Assembly: GCF_900167525.1 (NCBI RefSeq) | Contig: NZ_FUZQ01000005.1 | Span: 248,001-312,000, forward strand | DNA length: 64,000 nt | From: Krasilnikoviella flava | GTDB taxonomy: Bacteria > Actinomycetota > Actinomycetes > Actinomycetales > Cellulomonadaceae | Direction of reading: 5' to 3' | Shown: one piece after another, positions 4,794 to 52,776 of the stretch | Position numbering within the stretch: the stretch's first letter is position 1 | Layout: each line of letters opens with the position of its first letter | Program-made: the position numbers and the translations under genes | The notes under the pieces: generated by a model | Databases searched by the model: none | The model's input: only the letters and a program-made list of their open reading frames with translations | What the model was told of the DNA's origin: nothing

Positions 4794-8165
<3,372 letters not shown>

Positions 8166-44965: not shown

Positions 44966-45610
44966 CTAACTCCTTCGCGATGCTTGGACGATCCGGACGA
45001 ACAACCCGTGCAGTCGCGCGTCCCCCGTGATCTCCGGGTGGAACGCGGTGGCGAGCAGCCGTCCCTGACGTGCTGCGACGATCTTACCGGCGGCCGGCCC
45101 CACCGCGGATCCGTCCGCCCAGCGGTCGGGGATCCGGGAGAGCACCTCGACGCCCGGGCCCGCCTCCTCCACCCACGGGGCGCGGATGAACGCGGTGCGC
45201 ACCGGGCGCCCGCCTGGGACGTCGGAGACCCCCGCCACCTGCAGGTCCGCCTCGAAGGAGTCCACCTGGCGGCCGAACGCGTTGCGACGCACGACGACGT
45301 CCATGCCGCCGAGCGTGCGCTGGTCGGCCGTGCCGCCCTCGATGCGGTCGGCGAGCAGGATCATGCCCGCGCACGAGCCGAACACGGGCAGCCCTTCGCC
45401 GATGAGGCCCCGCAGCGGGTCGGCCAGCTCGAAGAGCCGCAGCAGCTTGTCGATCGTCGTCGACTCCCCGCCGGGCAGGACGAGCCCGTCCACCGCGTCG
45501 AGCTCGGCGGGGCGGCGCACCGCCACGGCACGCGCCCCTGCCTGCTCGAGGGCCGCGGCATGCTCGCGCACGTCGCCCTGCAGGGCGAGGACGCCGATCG
45601 TCGTGGTCAC
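44966..45610 (-). CDS. pdxT: Pyridoxal 5'-phosphate synthase glutaminase subunit PdxT
   Basis: The 214-residue glutaminase feeds ammonia to PdxS. It has LVLPGGEST (oxyanion), FGSCAGMIL with the catalytic Cys, [13 protein letters not shown] and ATAFHPEIT with the His-Glu pair. GTG start lies 6 bases after TACACT, so it has its own promoter. Its partner pdxS is 6 kb upstream, separated by the accessory block at 45.6-51.9 kb. Confidence 0.95.
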
Positions 45611-45616
45611 CGGGGC

Positions 45617-45622
45617 AGTGTA
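45617..45622 (-). promoter_or_regulatory. -10 element for pdxT
   Basis: TACACT on the minus strand, 6 bases before GTG 45610; leaderless layout. Confidence 0.55.
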
Positions 45623-45652
45623 GGGCCCCGGGTCTGCCCGCCCGGCGGCCGC

Positions 45653-46549
45653 TCAGCTGCACGTGCCGATCAGGCCCAGGGCGATGCTGTAGGTGCGGGG
45701 GTCCGACGGCACCGACGTCCAGACGACGCCGCCCGTGAAGACCCGCTCGGCGCGCACCCGTGCCGAGGCGTTCGCCGCGACGCCGGTCACCTGGTAGGTC
45801 GTGGTGCCCGCCGGGACCTGCACCGTGGCGGGTGTGGCTGCAGGGCCGAAGGTGAACTGGTACCGGCTCGCGCTGGGCACCGCCGTCCAGTTGAAGGTGA
45901 CGGACACCAGACCGAGCGCGCCGCACGAGAGAGCGGGGGCGGGGACGGTCCCCGCGCTCACCGCACCGCTCACGACGGTGCCCGTGTCGGTCCACGCCGT
46001 GCCCCCGAGCGACGCCGCGAGCGCCACGGACACGCCGCCCGCCTGCCCCTGCACCGTCGACGGTGCCGACGCGGAGAGCGCGACCGTCACGCACAGCGCG
46101 GCCGTCCCGCCCGCGGGGATGGTCGTGGAGGTGCCGTTGCCCGCGCCGCACCCGGTCCCGGTGTCGGCGGCGCCGAACGACGCGCTGGTGGTGAACGACG
46201 TGCCCAGGCTCCCGGTCCGCGTCGGAGTGACGGTCACCGTCGTCGGCCGCGAGCCGCCGTTGCGCACCGTGATGATCTCGGAGTCCCCGGACCCCGGCAC
46301 GGCCCCGGTGAGCCCCAGTGCGGGCGCCGTGACGCTGCCGCCGCGACCGACGAGCTCGTTGCCGAGGCCGACGACCTGGACGTCGACCGTGCCGGCCCGG
46401 ACGGCTGCGGTCGGGGCCGTCGCCGTGGCCTCGCCCTGCCACCAGGCCCACGCGACCCCGCCGCCCGCGAGCACGCCGACGAGCGCCACCACCGCCAGGA
46501 CCGCGACCCGGCGCATCCGCGCAGGGCGCCGGCCGGACCGTTCAGCCAC
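45653..46549 (-). CDS. Secreted protein with alternate-type signal peptide and Fn3-like end
   Basis: The 298-residue protein has a basic N-terminus and a hydrophobic segment (about 14-36), followed by WAWWQGEATATAPTAAVRAGTVDV. This resembles the W-(x)n-TATAP-AG-T/L pattern after the signal peptides of SipW-processed proteins. The rest is Thr/Ser/Gly-rich beta sequence, with a C-terminal 90-residue part (SVTFNWTAVPSASRYQFTF...) like a fibronectin type III fold. It is the last gene of a four-gene cluster and overlaps the LPRTG gene by 8 bases. Probably a surface or matrix component; function unknown. Confidence 0.6.
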   Translation of the reverse strand: MAERSGRRPARMRRVAVLAVVALVGVLAGGGVAWAWWQGEATATAPTAAVRAGTVDVQVVGLGNELVGRGGSVTAPALGLTGAVPGSGDSEIITVRNGGSRPTTVTVTPTRTGSLGTSFTTSASFGAADTGTGCGAGNGTSTTIPAGGTAALCVTVALSASAPSTVQGQAGGVSVALAASLGGTAWTDTGTVVSGAVSAGTVPAPALSCGALGLVSVTFNWTAVPSASRYQFTFGPAATPATVQVPAGTTTYQVTGVAANASARVRAERVFTGGVVWTSVPSDPRTYSIALGLIGTCS

Positions 46550-47273
46550 GGCGTCCCTCCCTCGCCGCGACCGCCCACCGCAGCAGCGCGCCCAGCAGGA
46601 CCGCGCCGGCCGCGACCAGGAGCGGCACCGCCGGGGACCCGCCGGTGCGCGGGAGGACGGCGGCGCGCGCGCCGTCGCCCGGCGCCGGCTCGTCGCGCGG
46701 GCGCTCGCCCGCTGCCGGCTGTTCGCCCACGAGGGTCACCACGACGTCGAGGGGCACGGTCGCGCCCTGGGTGTCGTCGCCCGCCGACGCGGCGAGGGTC
46801 ACCTCGAGCGCCACCGGGAGCACCTCGGACTCGGCGAGCCGTACGGGCACCGGCCGCCCGGCGGCCGTCCACGGGTCGCCGCCGGGTCGCACCCGGACGC
46901 GCAGGGCGCGGGCGAGCGCCCCGGCGGCGTCGCCCGCCCCCGCCCCCAGGGCCACGGCCACCTGGCCGCTGGCCGTGCCGCGCCTGTCGTTGCGCACCAG
47001 CAGCACCGAGCTCCGCGTCTCCCCCGGCACCCACGGCGAGGCCTCGAACAGCGCCACCTCCAGGTCGTCCGACCACCTGCGGCCGTCCACGCTGAGCGCG
47101 ACGCCCCCGTCGGGGTCCCCTCCCGCGGACGGGACGGCACCGGCTGCGGCCGGGGCCACCGGGAGGAGGAACGCGCCCGAGGCCACGACCGCGGCCAGGG
47201 TCCGCGCGGACGTCGCCCCGCGCCCGCGATGACGGGGCCGCGGCGGGGACGGGACTGCGCGCGCCGCGCTCAC
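46542..47273 (-). CDS. LPXTG-type cell-wall anchored protein
   Basis: The 243-residue protein has a long basic N-terminal region and signal peptide (cleavage likely after about residue 45), a beta-rich middle (VRNDRRGTASGQVAV... LEVTLAASAGD) and a complete sortase signal: LPRTG (207-211), hydrophobic segment (about 216-234) and basic tail REGRRG. No sortase gene is in the window. The GTG start overlaps the signal peptidase stop (GTGA), placing it in the same operon. Confidence 0.72.
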   Translation of the reverse strand: MSAARAVPSPPRPRHRGRGATSARTLAAVVASGAFLLPVAPAAAGAVPSAGGDPDGGVALSVDGRRWSDDLEVALFEASPWVPGETRSSVLLVRNDRRGTASGQVAVALGAGAGDAAGALARALRVRVRPGGDPWTAAGRPVPVRLAESEVLPVALEVTLAASAGDDTQGATVPLDVVVTLVGEQPAAGERPRDEPAPGDGARAAVLPRTGGSPAVPLLVAAGAVLLGALLRWAVAAREGRRG

Positions 47274-47923
47274 CGCACCGGCTCCCGGTCCGAGGTGGGC
47301 ACCGTGGGACTCGTCGCGCCGGGCGGCGACTCCTGCTCAGGCCACCAGGTCTCCAGGCCCGGCGACGGCTCCTCTCCCTTCCGGGAGCGCCGCTCCCGGA
47401 CCTCCCCCGCGACGAGCCACCCGGCGTACCCGAGCAGGAGGACGGCCGCGGCGGTCGTGATCGCCTGCCGCAGCTGCGGCGACCCCAGGCCCATGACGCG
47501 TCCGAGCTGCGGCACGGCGTACCAGAGCACGCCCCGCACCTGCACGGCGCGCACCGGCCGGGGGTCGGCGACCTCGTTGGCGTCGCCCCGCGTCACCAGG
47601 GTGCGCTCGCCGTCGGCCGTCGTGCCGAGCCCGACGACGCGATGGGTCACGACCGTCGGGTCGCCGGAGCGCAGCTGGTAGGTGACCACGTCTCCGGTCG
47701 CGATCTCGTCGGGGGCGACGGGGCGCACGACGACGAGCGTCCCGACGGCCAGCGCCGGGCTCATCGAGCCCGTGGCCACCCCGTACGGGACGCCGCCACC
47801 CAGGCGCGGGACCACGACGACGAGCAGCAGCGCGCCGCCGGCGACCAGCAGGACGAGCCCGGCGAGCACCCGCCCGAGGACGCGCCGCGCGCTGCGGACC
47901 GGCCGCGTGGGTGCCGGGTCCAC
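47270..47923 (-). CDS. Signal peptidase I, SipW type
   Basis: The 217-residue protein has a membrane helix (about 18-38), the catalytic Ser53 in ATGSMSPAL, and His94 in VTHRVVG in the place where ordinary bacterial enzymes have Lys. That Ser-His arrangement defines SipW/ER-type signal peptidases. A conserved RGDAN follows, and a second membrane helix lies at about 155-172. It is flanked by two proteins with alternate-type signal peptides, which are its likely substrates. Confidence 0.85.
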   Translation of the reverse strand: MDPAPTRPVRSARRVLGRVLAGLVLLVAGGALLLVVVVPRLGGGVPYGVATGSMSPALAVGTLVVVRPVAPDEIATGDVVTYQLRSGDPTVVTHRVVGLGTTADGERTLVTRGDANEVADPRPVRAVQVRGVLWYAVPQLGRVMGLGSPQLRQAITTAAAVLLLGYAGWLVAGEVRERRSRKGEEPSPGLETWWPEQESPPGATSPTVPTSDREPVR

Positions 47924-47930
47924 GGCGGGC

Positions 47931-48473
47931 TCAGGGCGTGGGGACGACGTGCGCCTGCGTGACCTGCACCGTCACGTCGTCGAGCGCGGCCGTCAGCCCC
48001 TGGGTGTCGTTCGTCGCGGCCGTGTCGAAGGCGGCCTCGAGGTTCACGACGAGCGAGTCCGTCTCGCCGACCGGGACGGGATCGGTGAGCGGGAGCGTCA
48101 GCGTCTCATCCCCCAGGGTCGCCGAGGTCAGGCTCAGGTCGAGAGCGCCGGTGAGGGCGTTCTCCGCGGTCCACGTCGGAGAGGAGACCGTGATCTCGCC
48201 GAGCGCGAGGTGGTCGCCGGTGCCCCCGATCGCCAGGGAGCAGGTGGTCGTGACCGTGTCGCCCGGCACGATGCCGTCCGTCACGGCGCCGCCTCCGTCG
48301 AGGGTCCACTCCCCGCACGCGCCGTCGCTCATCGTCAGTGTCCCCGCGGTGACGTCCGGCCCGGTGGCCGTCCCCTGCGCGGTCCAGTAGGCGATCGTCT
48401 GGGCCCCGCCGACCAGCAGGACGGCGGCACCTCCCACAGCGATCGCGGCCTTCGTCAGTCGGTTCACGTCCAT
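47931..48473 (-). CDS. TasA/CalY-like protein with alternate-type (SipW) signal peptide
   Basis: The 180-residue protein starts NRLTKAAIAVGGAAVLLVGG then AQTIAYWTAQGTATGPDVTAGTL, matching the alternate signal peptide family found next to SipW in actinobacteria. The mature part is acidic, Thr-rich beta sequence of about 145 residues. In Bacillus such proteins form biofilm fibres; here that role is inference. ATG 48473 is used, but GTG 48467 has better spacing to the G-run upstream. It heads the four-gene cluster. Confidence 0.75.
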   Translation of the reverse strand: MDVNRLTKAAIAVGGAAVLLVGGAQTIAYWTAQGTATGPDVTAGTLTMSDGACGEWTLDGGGAVTDGIVPGDTVTTTCSLAIGGTGDHLALGEITVSSPTWTAENALTGALDLSLTSATLGDETLTLPLTDPVPVGETDSLVVNLEAAFDTAATNDTQGLTAALDDVTVQVTQAHVVPTP

Positions 48474-48528: not shown

Positions 48529-48569
48529 CGACGGTAACCAACGGATGCCCTGGGCGCGCGTCGTGCGCG

Positions 48570-48634
48570 CAGGGTCAGCGGGCAGGGTCAGCGGGCAGGG
48601 TCAGCGGGCAGGGTCAGCGGGCAGGGTCAGCGGG
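48570..48634. repeat. Five perfect tandem copies of a 13-base unit
   Basis: CAGGGTCAGCGGG is repeated five times without mismatch, followed by a partial unit. The array covers the stop codon of the NUDIX gene and fills part of the upstream region of the TasA-like cluster. As 13 is not a multiple of three, each strand of the array offers a TGA in all frames on the minus strand. Confidence 0.95.
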
Positions 48635-49202
48635 CAGCGGTGCCCAGCTCCTCAGGGTCGGAGGGCTCGTCGTCGTGCTGGGTGCCGAGGTGGCGCACGG
48701 TGCCGTCCCACCCGCGGACGAGGGCGTCGACGACGTCCGGCAGGACGGTCGGGAACACCTCGCGCGTCTCGGCCCGCAGCTCTGCGACGGTCAGCCAGCG
48801 CATCTCGTCGAGCACGTCCCGCTCCTCAGGGGTCCACCCGGCGTCCGTCGGCTCGTGGCCGCCGTCCACGCGGGCGAGGAAGAAGACCTCCTGCTGCCGG
48901 CACGTCTCCGCGAAGAAGTGGAAGAACGCGTCGCGGGTCAGGACGGGGCCCACGAGGTCGTCGGGCGCGAGCACGAGTCCCGCCTCCTCGCGCAGCTCGC
49001 GCAGCGCGGCGTCGACCTCGCTCTCGCCGGCGTCGATGCCGCCGCCGACGGTGAACCACCACGACCGCTCGGGCTGGTCGGCGTCGTGCCCGCGCACCAG
49101 GAGCACCCGGTCCGCGTCGTCGAGCACGATGACGCGCGCGGCGCGCCGTTGGCGCAGCCCGTCCGGCCCTACCGCCCAGTCGTCCCCGAGGGCGGGGGTC
49201 AC
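48627..49202 (-). CDS. NUDIX hydrolase
   Basis: The 191-residue protein has the Nudix box GGGIDAGESEVDAALRELREEAGL, preceded by VIVLDDADRVLLVRGHD. The family cleaves nucleoside-diphosphate-linked compounds; the substrate is not clear. GTG 49202 was chosen because the Nudix fold starts soon after and it overlaps (GTGA) the stop of a pdxS-derived peptide frame. The stop codon lies within the 13-base repeat array. Confidence 0.83.
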   Translation of the reverse strand: MTPALGDDWAVGPDGLRQRRAARVIVLDDADRVLLVRGHDADQPERSWWFTVGGGIDAGESEVDAALRELREEAGLVLAPDDLVGPVLTRDAFFHFFAETCRQQEVFFLARVDGGHEPTDAGWTPEERDVLDEMRWLTVAELRAETREVFPTVLPDVVDALVRGWDGTVRHLGTQHDDEPSDPEELGTAAR

Positions 49203-49288
49203 CAGCCCCGCTCCGCCAGGCGCACGGGCGCCGGCTCGGCCTCGACGACGATGCCGTGGTTCACGGCTGACGGGGAACGTGCATCCAT
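49199..49288 (-). pseudogene. pdxS 3'-end remnant, now a 29-codon leader frame before the NUDIX gene
   Basis: The last 18 codons read [18 protein letters not shown], identical to the PdxS C-terminus except one residue, and end in TGA. At base level 48 of 57 positions match pdxS (51859-51915). After the shared 21-base core, differences within the coding codons are all synonymous. Upstream it reads in frame to ATG 49288, which lies 7 bases after TACCAT. It could be translated and coupled to NUDIX, but as PdxS it is only a tail. Confidence 0.8.
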
Positions 49289-49295
49289 GGTGCCC

Positions 49296-49301
49296 ATGGT
49301 A
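49296..49301 (-). promoter_or_regulatory. -10 element before the pdxS remnant/NUDIX unit
   Basis: TACCAT on the minus strand, 7 bases before ATG 49288; leaderless layout. Confidence 0.45.
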
Positions 49302-49327
49302 GCCACGGGACCAAGGGAGCCCCGCTC

Positions 49328-51844
49328 TCACCGGCGAGGCTTCACTCGCTTGGTCGGGAGGGCGGTGAGTGGATCCTCCGGCCACGGATGGCGAGGGTAG
49401 CGGGCTCGCAGGTCGGCTCGGACCCGGGGATAGCCCTGCCTCCAGAAGGAGGCGAGATCGCTCGTGATCGCGACCGGACGTCGTGCGGGCGACAGCAGGT
49501 GCAGGACGACCGGGACACGACCGTCCGCGACGGCCGGAGTCACGGTCCAGCCGAAGACCTCCTGCAGCTTCACTGCAAGGACCGGCGGCTCGACACCGTC
49601 GTACGCGAGTCGGACCTCGGAGCCCGACGGGACCTGGAGCCGTTCCGGTGCCAGTTCACCGAACCGGGCTGCCGTGGGCCAAGGCAGGAGTCGCCGGAGC
49701 GCCGATGCCACGTCGATGCGGGCAAGATCGCGCGAGCCTCGCACCGAGGCGAGCTCGGTACCCAGCCATCCGTCGAGATCGGCCAGCAGCGCCTCGTCGT
49801 CGACCGCAGGCCACGGGGCCCCGAGGTGGGCGTGACAGAACGCGAGCCGCTCCCGCAGGGCGAGTGCTGCCTCTGGCCAGCGCAGCACGGACAGTCCGCT
49901 GCGCCGGACACCGTCGCGGACGGCCGCTTGGAGGAGCAGCCGGTCGGGGTTCGCCAGCGGGACGTCGCCCAGCACTATCGCGCCGAGCGCCTCGACACGC
50001 CGCGTCACGATCCGGCCGTCGTCCCAGCGGATCTGGTCGGTGGTCGACACGAGGTCGCCTGCGATGTCTCGCGCGGTCCGCTCATCGATCGGCGCCGCGG
50101 CACGGATCCTGGCGTCGGCGCGACCGGGAGCCCGGTCAGCGACCGCGATCGCCAGCCAGGTCGTGTTCCGCAACGGCGAGTGCAGATCCAGCGCGGCACC
50201 CGTACCACCCGACATCTGGTACGTCGCCGAGTCGGTCCCCCGGGCCCGCGCGATCCGATCCGGGTACGCCAGCCCCGCCACGATCCCCACCGCGAGATCG
50301 TCCGGTACTCCGTGCGCCCCACGCCCACCCGACGGGCCGCCGGTCGTCGTTCCTCGGCCGAGGCGCTTCGTCTCTTCTCGCCAGCGGGCCGTCGCGCCGC
50401 GGTCCTCACCACGGCGGAGGGCCCGCAGGCGGGCCGGCAGATCATCGCCGACGTTGCGGCCCACGTCGTCCGAGAGCATCGCGACGATCTCGCGTGCCCG
50501 GTCGGCGCCGACCCGCGGGGCCCCGTCCAGCAGCGCACGCGCCAGGCGAGGATGCGCCCCGATCGCCCTCATCCGCCGGCCCCGCTCGGTGATCCGGCCG
50601 CCGTCGTCCAGGGCATCGATGCGGCGCAGCAGCTCGGTGGCCGCGGTCATCGCCGGCGCCGGCGGCGCCTCGAGCAACGTCAGACCGGCACCAGCAGGGG
50701 CACCCCACGCCGCGAGGTCGAGGGCGAAGGCTGCCAGGTCGGCGATCGCGATCTCCGGCGCCGCATGATCGTCGAGACGCGCGTGGTCGGTGACGGACCA
50801 GCACCGATAGACCCGGCCGGGCGCCTCCCGCCCGGCGCGACCTGCTCGTTGGTCGGCCGACGATCTCGAGACCCGGCAGGTGACCAACGTCCCGAGACCA
50901 CGGGACTGATCGGTCCGCGGCTCCCGGGCAAGACCCGCGTCGACCACGACCCTGACCCCGGGCACGGTCAGCGAGCTCTCCGCCACCGACGTCGTCACCA
51001 CGATCCGACGCACGGCGGACGGCGCCAACGCGCGCTCCTGTTCGGCCCTCGACTGGCGACCGAACAACGGCAGGACATTCTGACCGGCCAACCGGCGAGT
51101 CATGCCGTTGATCTCGGCCTCCCCCGGGACGAACACGAGGATGTCGCCGTCGTTCTCCGTCAGTGCGCGCCGGACGACGGTCGCGACATGATCCAGCAGG
51201 CGCGGGTCGACGCGACCACCGGGAAGCAGCGGCGTGGGCAACGGTGGTGGAGCCCACTCGGTCGCCACGTCGAACAGCGCGGCGGACGCCGTGATCACGG
51301 GTGCGGGTACGTCCGCGCCGAGTGCGCGGCTCAGCCTGGCCGTGTCCGCCGTGGCCGAGGTCGCGACGATGGCCAGGTCGTCCCGAAGATTCGCCCGGAT
51401 GTCGACGCAGAGCGCGAGCAGCAGGTCGGCATCCAGGTGCCGCTCGTGGCACTCGTCGATCACGATCGCCGTGACACCTGGCAGCTCCGGGTCCTGCTGC
51501 AGCCGTCGCACGAGGAGCCCTGTCGTCACCACCTCGACGCGGAGTCCCTTGCCGCCGGTGCGCTCACCTCGCATCGCGTAGCCGATCCGCTGTCCGAGCG
51601 GCTCGCCTGCCAGCATCGCCAGCCGGGTCGCAGCCGCGCGGGTAGCCATCCGTCGCGGCTCGGCGACGATGATCGTGCCCCCGAGCGCGTCGCCCAGAGC
51701 AAGCGGCAACAAGGAGGTCTTCCCTGACCCTGGCGGCGCGACCAGCACCGCGGCGCCGCGGGACCGCACCGCATCGACGGTGGCAGGCAGGACCGCCCGG
51801 ACAGGCAGATCCGCACCTGGCACCGACGGTTCAGGCAGCAGCAC
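49328..51844 (-). CDS. hrpB: ATP-dependent helicase HrpB
   Basis: The 838-residue DEAH-type helicase has Walker A APPGSGKTSLLPLALG, the DECHERH box, SATAD (motif III), VFVPGEAEI, TTSVAESSLTVPGV and QRAGRAGREAPGRVYR (motif VI), then the HA2-like and HrpB C-terminal domains. The length is right for full HrpB, whose RNA role is poorly known. GTG start, 14 bases after pdxS. Rough counts on three lines give 67-73% GC against 77-82% in two neighbouring lines, and the gene lies between duplicated pdxS ends, so acquisition is likely. Confidence 0.9.
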   Translation of the reverse strand: MLLPEPSVPGADLPVRAVLPATVDAVRSRGAAVLVAPPGSGKTSLLPLALGDALGGTIIVAEPRRMATRAAATRLAMLAGEPLGQRIGYAMRGERTGGKGLRVEVVTTGLLVRRLQQDPELPGVTAIVIDECHERHLDADLLLALCVDIRANLRDDLAIVATSATADTARLSRALGADVPAPVITASAALFDVATEWAPPPLPTPLLPGGRVDPRLLDHVATVVRRALTENDGDILVFVPGEAEINGMTRRLAGQNVLPLFGRQSRAEQERALAPSAVRRIVVTTSVAESSLTVPGVRVVVDAGLAREPRTDQSRGLGTLVTCRVSRSSADQRAGRAGREAPGRVYRCWSVTDHARLDDHAAPEIAIADLAAFALDLAAWGAPAGAGLTLLEAPPAPAMTAATELLRRIDALDDGGRITERGRRMRAIGAHPRLARALLDGAPRVGADRAREIVAMLSDDVGRNVGDDLPARLRALRRGEDRGATARWREETKRLGRGTTTGGPSGGRGAHGVPDDLAVGIVAGLAYPDRIARARGTDSATYQMSGGTGAALDLHSPLRNTTWLAIAVADRAPGRADARIRAAAPIDERTARDIAGDLVSTTDQIRWDDGRIVTRRVEALGAIVLGDVPLANPDRLLLQAAVRDGVRRSGLSVLRWPEAALALRERLAFCHAHLGAPWPAVDDEALLADLDGWLGTELASVRGSRDLARIDVASALRRLLPWPTAARFGELAPERLQVPSGSEVRLAYDGVEPPVLAVKLQEVFGWTVTPAVADGRVPVVLHLLSPARRPVAITSDLASFWRQGYPRVRADLRARYPRHPWPEDPLTALPTKRVKPRR

Positions 51845-51858
51845 GCCTCGCCTTCGGT

Positions 51859-52776
51859 CTACCAGCCGCGCTCGGCCAACCGCACAGGCGCCGGCTCGGC
51901 CTCGACGTTGATGCCGACCATGGCCTCGCCCAGACCGCGGGAGACCTTGGCGACGACGTCGGGGTCGTCGTGGAACGTGGTGGCCTGCACGATCGCCTTG
52001 GCACGCGCGACGGGGTCGCCCGACTTGAAGATGCCGGAACCCACGAACACGCCCTCGGCGCCCAGCTGCATCATCATCGCCGCGTCCGCCGGGGTGGCGA
52101 TCCCGCCCGCGGTGAACAGCACGACAGGCAGCTTCCCGGCTCGCGCCACCTCGGCGACCAGCTCGTACGGGGCCTGCAGCTCCTTGGCGGCGACGAACAG
52201 CTCGTCCTCCGGGAGCGACGTCAGCCGGCGGATCTGGCCGCGGATCTGGCGCATGTGCGTGGTCGCGTTCGAGACGTCGCCGGTGCCGGCCTCGCCCTTC
52301 GAGCGGATCATCGCGGCGCCCTCGGTGATGCGGCGCAGCGCCTCACCGAGGTTGGTCGCCCCGCACACGAACGGCACGGTGAACTGCCACTTGTCGATGT
52401 GGTTGGCGTAGTCGGCGGGGGTCAGCACCTCCGACTCGTCGATGTAGTCGACGCCCAGGGACTGCAGCACCTGCGCCTCGACGAAGTGCCCGATGCGCGC
52501 CTTCGCCATCACGGGGATCGAGACGGCGTCGATGATGCCGTCGATCATGTCGGGGTCGCTCATGCGGGCGACGCCGCCCTGCGAGCGGATGTCGGCCGGC
52601 ACCCGTTCCAGGGCCATGACGGCGACGGCGCCGGCGTCCTCGGCGATCTTCGCCTGCTCGGGCGTGACGACGTCCATGATGACGCCGCCCTTGAGCATCT
52701 CGGCCATGCCGCGCTTGACGCGGGCCGTGCCCACCTCACCCGCGGTGATCTGGCCGTTGCCGGTGGTCTCGCTCAA
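51859..52776 (-). CDS. pdxS: Pyridoxal 5'-phosphate synthase lyase subunit PdxS
   Basis: The 305-residue TIM-barrel enzyme makes PLP from ribose 5-phosphate, glyceraldehyde 3-phosphate and ammonia. Signatures are [21 protein letters not shown], the catalytic Lys in [21 protein letters not shown] and the C-terminal tail [14 protein letters not shown]. The start seems to be TTG 52776 with GAGG upstream. The last ten codons use CCT, CGG, TTG and TAG, unlike the diverged copy at 49199-49255, suggesting that this 3' end came with hrpB. Confidence 0.95.

What the first reader, a model, noticed from the sequence alone, without database searches (positions are those of the whole stretch)
49199..51915. 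hrpB lies between two diverged copies of the pdxS 3' end
The intact pdxS end (51859-51915) and a remnant (49199-49255) match at 48 of 57 bases and share a 21-base identical core. They encode the same 18-residue tail except one residue. After the core, the coding codons differ only synonymously (CCT/CCC, CGG/CGC, TTG/CTG, GCC/GCG, CGC/CGG), and the stops are TAG and TGA. Both ends therefore evolved as working pdxS termini in different lineages. The remnant abuts the NUDIX gene and looks ancestral, so about 2.66 kb with hrpB was inserted and brought a replacement pdxS tail. This is how elements that target gene 3' ends behave, yet no integrase is visible.
Basis: partly seen in the sequence, partly recalled or inferred. 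Interest (0 to 1): 0.75.

Follow-up and report, generated by a model that had tools for sequence, protein, structure and literature searches.

The report
Fossil insertion site in vitamin-B6 gene
In a soil actinobacterium a helicase gene sits between a vitamin-B6 gene and a leftover copy of that gene's tail; relatives indicate that this gene's end is a recurrent docking site for swappable blocks of genes.

Summary
In detail: the last 57 bases of pdxS match the remnant at 48 of 57 (17 of 18 residues; best other 57-mer in the window, 34). The genus is Isoptericola. In 7 of 18 held genomes pdxS ends in TGGTGA overlapping the NUDIX GTG; in 8 of 18 hrpB lies between. Four relatives carry decayed versions of the remnant, so the insertion is older than this strain and the remnant is a fossil inside a 29-codon mini-ORF. 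The wider family explains it. In Promicromonospora- and Myceligenerans-like genomes the DNA after pdxS is an array of units of 0.5-7.4 kb, separated by further pdxS tail copies that mostly stand behind a shared 14-base arm (CAATCTTGGACCAC). An exact copy lies 45.7 kb after pdxS in another family. The window remnant keeps 10 of 14 arm bases in register. Units (toxin-antitoxin and other genes) recur in different places and genera. hrpB crosses genera at rpoB-level identity and has foreign codon usage here. The pdxS 3' end is therefore a recurrent, tail-swapping integration site. No recombinase was found in the island parts examined, so how units move is unknown.

The parts
51859..52776 (-). pdxS (pyridoxal 5'-phosphate synthase, SOR/SNZ family), stop TAG
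   Evidence: ORF; PF01680 E=1.1e-107
51859..51915 (-). intact pdxS 3' end, the attL-like copy of the docking site
   Evidence: 48 of 57 bases shared with the remnant; the same segment is the repeated unit in relatives
49328..51844 (-). hrpB helicase gene (838 aa), starting 14 bases after the pdxS stop; GC3 83.3 against 92.1-98.0 for seven other genes of the window
   Evidence: PF08482 HrpB_C E=2.4e-50; GC3; cross-genus identity
49199..49255 (-). remnant copy of the pdxS 3' end, the attR-like relic; its TGA overlaps the NUDIX GTG
49256..49269 (-). arm relic CAGCCGTGAACCAC, 10 of 14 to the arm CAATCTTGGACCAC found before tail copies in other genera
   Evidence: arm consensus; shuffled-arm control
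49199..49288 (-). 29-codon mini-[32 protein letters not shown] that contains the remnant and stops on the NUDIX start
   Evidence: counterparts in G010, G011, G009, G002
49289..49301 (-). leaderless-type promoter signal: TACCAT, then 7 bases, then the ATG at 49288
   Evidence: TANNNT-N7-ATG in 11 of 11 Isoptericola genomes with an insert
48627..49202 (-). NUDIX hydrolase gene, the ancestral neighbour of pdxS
   Evidence: PF00293 E=5.7e-22; direct pdxS overlap in 7 of 18 genomes

Best explanation
The pdxS 3' end is an integration site for mobile gene units in Promicromonosporaceae-type actinobacteria. A unit carries its own copy of the pdxS tail (about 57 bases from the codons GIN to the stop, often followed by a terminator-like hairpin). 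On entering within the tail it leaves pdxS with the incoming tail, and the old tail is pushed to the far side, behind the unit's arm CAATCTTGGACCAC. Repeated entry builds arrays. In the window hrpB lies in such a unit, or in the residue of several, between the live tail (attL) and the fossil tail (attR) that still touches NUDIX. The NUDIX gene, cut off from the pdxS promoter, is read from a leaderless promoter through a mini-ORF made of the fossil tail. Shown: the repeats, the arm, unit sharing, hrpB transfer between genera, the ancestral junction. Inferred: that entry is by recombination at a short core (about GGCATCAACGTCGA), that the recombinase acts in trans or has been lost, and that the mini-ORF couples translation to NUDIX.
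For: Direct pdxS-NUDIX overlap in 7 of 18 Isoptericola genomes and in other genera. Tail copies downstream of pdxS were found first by protein search without using the arm: 12 rows, 11 distinct after dropping one record held twice; 8 of the 11 carry the arm, and the 3 that lie at NUDIX (G000, G063, G082 at 5039) carry it in part (G000) or not. With the arm in the pattern: 17 sites in 9 of 221 family genomes and 0 reversed-control hits; 15 of the 17 are on the pdxS contig, downstream on the same strand (pdxS places), and two (G019) are on another contig. The arm with up to 2 mismatches has 27 rows (three records held twice) in 731,578 bases against a mean of 1.75 for 20 shuffled arms. In an order-wide draw 2 of 396 genomes match, one of them (G453) of another family, exact over 28 bases and 45.7 kb after pdxS. 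Units are shared between genera: the HTH/peptidase unit is 94.6% identical over 2,681 bases between G031 (g15) and G135 (g7), while rpoB of G031 is 88.2 and 88.6% identical to two other g7 genomes. Tail type disagrees with the pdxS body tree in g7, and G047 keeps the type VDEIPEPH at its copy while its pdxS now ends VEEEPAPV. hrpB DNA identity G000-G063 is 90.3% against rpoB 89.1%. Pairs G003/G008, G005/G013 and G012/G007 differ in state although rpoB and NUDIX (G005/G013 only 92/87) keep them together.
Against: No recombinase: no PF00589 hit lies in the islands of nine array genomes or between pdxS and the site in G453, and none of 47 island proteins scanned matches a recombinase or transposase family. 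Only tyrosine integrases were sought genome-wide; serine recombinases were tested only through that sample and a motif scan without positive control. No match to the site in viral contigs or phages; in the plasmid collection two records match 36-37% of the query at 80%, one of them an intact pdxS. In Isoptericola no arm site within 3 mismatches exists, and the tail match is weak in G009 (31 of 48, next best 29). A further tail copy in G019 (L269 near 5502) lacks the arm. Along the arrays the likeness of copies to the own pdxS tail does not fall steadily with distance (G135: 55, 41, 52, 47 of 57; G031: 43, 48, 45), so growth from the pdxS end is not proved. The arm conservation is partly by selection, because the 17 sites were picked with the arm in the pattern. 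RecA-type recombination between tails is not excluded.
Confidence: 0.72

Rival explanations
1. Homologous recombination only: conserved pdxS and downstream genes let foreign fragments recombine in, carrying neighbours such as hrpB; the tail copies are by-products and later serve as homology for RecA.
For: No recombinase in the islands. Tail plus what follows gives tens of bases of homology. Isoptericola pairs differ in state while NUDIX stays with the rpoB pairing.
Against: The same arm precedes tails of unrelated units and is identical in another family. The tail swap in G047 confines the crossover to about 14 bases (GGCATCAACGTCGA), if the old copy was the former pdxS tail.
Confidence: 0.2
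2. Single ancient illegitimate insertion of hrpB in Isoptericola with a duplicated tail, then vertical decay and several losses; the arrays in other genera are unrelated.
For: Eight of 18 genomes share hrpB at this place and remnants decay to different degrees. hrpB of G000 and G010 are sisters.
Against: hrpB is as similar between genera as rpoB; its GC3 in the window is foreign; the window relic shows the arm of the other genera at 10 of 14; insert against direct state changes at least 4 times on the rpoB tree.
Confidence: 0.07
3. The remnant is kept because it is a functional leader peptide coupled to NUDIX, and its likeness to pdxS reflects gene conversion rather than age.
For: The GTGA overlap with a mini-ORF is kept in 7 of 11 Isoptericola genomes with an insert and a TANNNT-N7-ATG signal in 11 of 11. 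The residue type of the remnant (EA or EE) agrees with the own pdxS tail in 5 of 5 genomes (by eye), a small sample.
Against: The peptide sequence is not conserved in G010, G009, G002 or G011, and G001, G005, G012 and G014 have no such mini-ORF. It does not explain the arm. It is compatible with the best explanation.
Confidence: 0.2

Closest known systems
Dehalococcoides ssrA genomic islands (PMC3146451; passages seen)
   Same: Many tandem islands downstream of one gene, each bounded by a repeat of that gene's 3' end, with a conserved 15-base motif just upstream of the repeat that does not align with the gene; 15 islands have no integration module.
   Different: The target there is tmRNA, the repeat 20 bases, and 16 islands carry an integration module with a CcrB-like integrase. 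Here the target is a protein gene, the tail is swapped, and no recombinase was found.
Cis-mobilizable elements and tandem accretion (for example the review PMC5704250; search listings only)
   Same: Units with attachment sites but no integration genes, stacked at one locus (definition as quoted in PMC3146451).
   Different: No partner element encoding the integrase was found at pdxS; units are as short as 0.5 kb.
Integron gene cassettes (recalled, not from a call)
   Same: Arrays of short units, each next to a recombination site in one direction; toxin-antitoxin cargo.
   Different: No tyrosine recombinase near the arrays, the site is a coding tail rather than attC, and gene orientation varies.

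Membership tests
Integrative elements targeting a gene 3' end | Direct repeat of the gene 3' end at the far boundary | tested here: met
   Window 48 of 57; 17 sites in 9 of 221 genomes
Integrative elements targeting a gene 3' end | Empty site in relatives | tested here: met
   pdxS TGGTGA overlapping NUDIX in 7 of 18 Isoptericola genomes
Integrative elements targeting a gene 3' end | Own site-specific recombinase in the element | tested here: not met
   No PF00589 hit in the islands of 9 array genomes or of G453; none of 47 island proteins scanned matches a recombinase family; serine recombinases were not sought genome-wide
Cis-mobilizable elements / tandem accretion | Several units without recombinase at one site, each bounded by attachment-like repeats | tested here: met
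   G135 has four and G031 three copies downstream of pdxS
Cis-mobilizable elements / tandem accretion | Mobilised in trans by a related integrase | not testable with these tools
   No candidate integrase identified; needs experiment
Integron cassette array | Integron integrase adjacent and palindromic attC sites | tested here: not met
   No tyrosine recombinase near the arrays; the shared repeat is a coding tail behind an arm

The most novel reading that the evidence does not exclude
A previously undescribed cassette-capture system of actinobacteria: the pdxS coding tail, flanked by an arm (and in G453 by a second, inverted arm 65-68 bases after the stop), works as a recombination site for short units with toxin-antitoxin and defence-like genes, moved in trans by a recombinase encoded elsewhere, with each capture rewriting the C-terminus of PdxS. 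The window is a fossil of it.
Probability: 0.3. Interest if true: 0.8.

Novelty: new variant of a known kind. Interest (0 to 1): 0.6.

Why it matters
It names a specific, testable docking site for gene exchange between genera, suggests that a core metabolic protein has its C-terminus swapped by mobile units, and explains an otherwise odd separation of pdxS from its neighbour NUDIX. Finding the enzyme would tell whether integrase-less arrays are driven in trans.

Tried and rejected
Rejected: remnant as chance; insertion private to this strain. The first tail search was too strict and suggested that G000 alone has a remnant; the decayed copies were seen. The first rpoB tree mixed reading frames, had a branch of length 10 and was discarded. 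The first NUDIX tree had two wrong rows (G009, G011) and was redone. The window arm count was off by one base (5 of 14) and was recounted (10 of 14). The first integrase listing was cut by the tool and was repeated on nine genomes with a full list. No phage or viral-contig carrier was found and only two partial plasmid-collection hits. Paper searches: pdxS with genomic island and integrase (3 papers), pdxS with attachment site (15 papers, 10 listed), pyridoxal biosynthesis with integration hotspot (0), Promicromonospora with gene cassette (2), Isoptericola with horizontal gene transfer and genomic island (2); judged by titles and abstract starts, none deals with pdxS as an integration site. 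The library holds open-licence papers only. The motif scan for recombinases (144 sequences, no hit) had no positive control and is not relied on.
Full report
Observation. The window carries pdxS (51859-52776), hrpB (49328-51844) and a NUDIX gene (48627-49202), all on the minus strand. The last 57 bases of pdxS and 49199-49255 agree at 48 positions with a 21-base identical run, against at most 34 for any other 57-mer of the window. The two translations differ in one of 18 residues. The TGA of the remnant overlaps the GTG start of NUDIX.

Genus. The window's genus group g1 contains a contig (G007) of the same length as the Isoptericola halotolerans record NZ_PVTX01000010.1, so g1 is taken to be Isoptericola. 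All 18 held genomes of g1, the window's own included, were compared at pdxS. In seven (G004, G007, G008, G013, G015, G016, G017) pdxS ends TGGTGA and the NUDIX gene starts on that GTG. In eight (G000, G001, G002, G003, G005, G009, G010, G011) hrpB lies between, in G002, G009 and G011 with 1.7-1.9 kb of further genes. Three (G006, G012, G014) have other genes there. In other genera, for example G044, G050, G102, Actinotalea solisilvae and Rarobacter, NUDIX likewise begins within some tens of bases of the pdxS match and the pdxS stop reads TGGTGA.

The remnant is older than the strain. G010, G011, G009 and G002 carry, at the same place, a mini-ORF that ends in a decayed pdxS tail and stops on the NUDIX GTG. 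Over 48 bases the match of remnant to own pdxS tail is 41, 36, 39, 31 and 39 in G000, G010, G011, G009 and G002; no other 48-mer of the locus reaches it, though in G009 only just (31 against 29). All 11 genomes with an insert have TANNNT, seven bases and ATG before the mini-ORF or NUDIX start, against about 0.02 expected per 150 bases (the stretches searched had been looked at before). Such signals are described for leaderless genes in actinobacteria (search listing, titles and abstract starts only). In 7 of the 11 the GTGA overlap survives, and in 4 NUDIX starts at its own ATG. I infer that NUDIX, cut off from pdxS, is now read from this promoter and that the fossil tail serves as a coupled leader.

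hrpB moves between genera. The hrpB type seen here (81-92% identical proteins) also occurs in g7, g15 and g3; in g7 and g15 it lies downstream of pdxS on the same strand, in g3 (G019) on another contig. The usual type of the family is near 53-60%. DNA identity between G000 and G063 (g7) is 90.3%, as high as rpoB (89.1%), while hrpB of G001 and G005 in the same genus is farther (80.0 and 82.4%). Against a very recent import stands that G000 and G010 are sisters on the hrpB tree (100/100). On the rpoB tree the presence of hrpB at pdxS changes at least five times and insert against direct at least four times (17 of the 18 Isoptericola, because no rpoB was found in G016). GC3 of hrpB in the window is 83.3 against 92.1-98.0 for seven other genes, the lowest of 27 hrpB genes compared.

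The wider system. In g7 and g15 the pdxS tail recurs downstream of pdxS (12 rows, of which Myceligenerans indicum and G053 are one record), and in g3 on a separate contig. Eight of the 11 distinct copies are preceded by a shared arm, consensus CAATCTTGGACCAC. The three copies that touch NUDIX are decayed, and of these the window copy keeps 10 of 14 arm bases. A scan with arm plus core gave 17 sites in 9 of 221 family genomes, none in a reversed control; one more tail copy in G019 has no arm. In an order-wide draw 2 of 396 genomes matched: G031, already known, and G453 of another family, exact over 28 bases and 45.7 kb downstream of its pdxS on the same strand. There an inverted copy of the arm stands 65-68 bases after the stop, at both pdxS and the distant copy. 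The column information is 1.86 bits in the arm against 0.2-0.3 in the 40 bases before it; the sites were chosen with the arm, so this overstates it.

Units. Between copies lie units of 546 to 7,432 bases in eight of the nine array genomes (G019 is split over contigs and was not measured), and 45.65 kb in G453. Cargo includes a ribbon-helix-helix/PemK-MazF pair, helix-turn-helix with an IrrE-like peptidase, an AAA_14-DUF4143 ATPase, an Abi_2 protein, a CHAT protein, a helicase with a nuclease-like domain, a HINT pretoxin, and in G453 an OLD-like AAA protein and DUF4238. The same unit appears in different places: the MazF pair is in the first unit after pdxS in G082, G130 and G135 but in the fourth in G031, and the helix-turn-helix unit of G031 and G135 is 94.6% identical over 2,681 bases and ends with the tail in both. 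In g7 the tail types VEEEPAPV and VDEIPEPH are intermixed on the tree of the pdxS body, and G047 keeps the other type at its copy: the tail appears to be replaced as a block.

Mechanism. A unit entering within the tail explains the live and the old tail, the arm only at the far side, and the arrays. Many tails are followed by a strong hairpin. The likeness of copies to the own pdxS tail does not fall steadily with distance, so growth from the pdxS end is plausible but not proved. What drives entry is open. No tyrosine recombinase lies in the islands of the nine array genomes or in that of G453, and none of 47 island proteins scanned matches a recombinase or transposase family. A trans-acting enzyme, a lost enzyme or RecA remain. 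The nearest published case, of which I saw passages, is the tandem ssrA islands of Dehalococcoides (PMC3146451), which also have a 15-base motif upstream of each repeat and islands without integration module.

Verdict. The finding is real and points to a recurrent integration site; in the window itself it is a fossil. Kind: new variant of tandem islands at a gene 3' end.

Noticed in passing
48569-48637: About five head-to-tail copies of a 13-base unit (GCAGGGTCAGCGG) lie just after the NUDIX stop; the close relative G010 has a 41-base gap there.
   Followed up: no
51845-51858: The window has only 14 bases between pdxS and hrpB, whereas G010 has 80 with a short hairpin and a TANNNT-like signal before hrpB; hrpB here may now be read through from pdxS.
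   Followed up: partly
44966-48473: In the window, G006, G007 and G010 a SipW-like/signal-peptidase cluster follows NUDIX (pdxT not seen in G010, contig end), whereas in 9 of 18 Isoptericola genomes pdxT begins within about 135 bases of the NUDIX match.
   Followed up: no
L249:1059-10235: Island of Myceligenerans indicum carries a phosphorylase-domain protein, a 676-aa protein without Pfam match and two DUF4143-type ATPases (the second by DNA likeness to that of G047), possibly a defence cluster.
   Followed up: partly
L288, L289, L286 (G453): 45.7 kb between pdxS and the exact tail copy: many genes that look metabolic and, towards the copy, an OLD-like AAA protein and DUF4238; arm copies in opposite direction stand at its two ends.
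   Followed up: partly
remnants of G000, G010, G009, G011, G002: Remnant and own pdxS tail agree in residue type (EA or EE) in five of five genomes (by eye), a hint of gene conversion between the two copies; too few to conclude.
   Followed up: no
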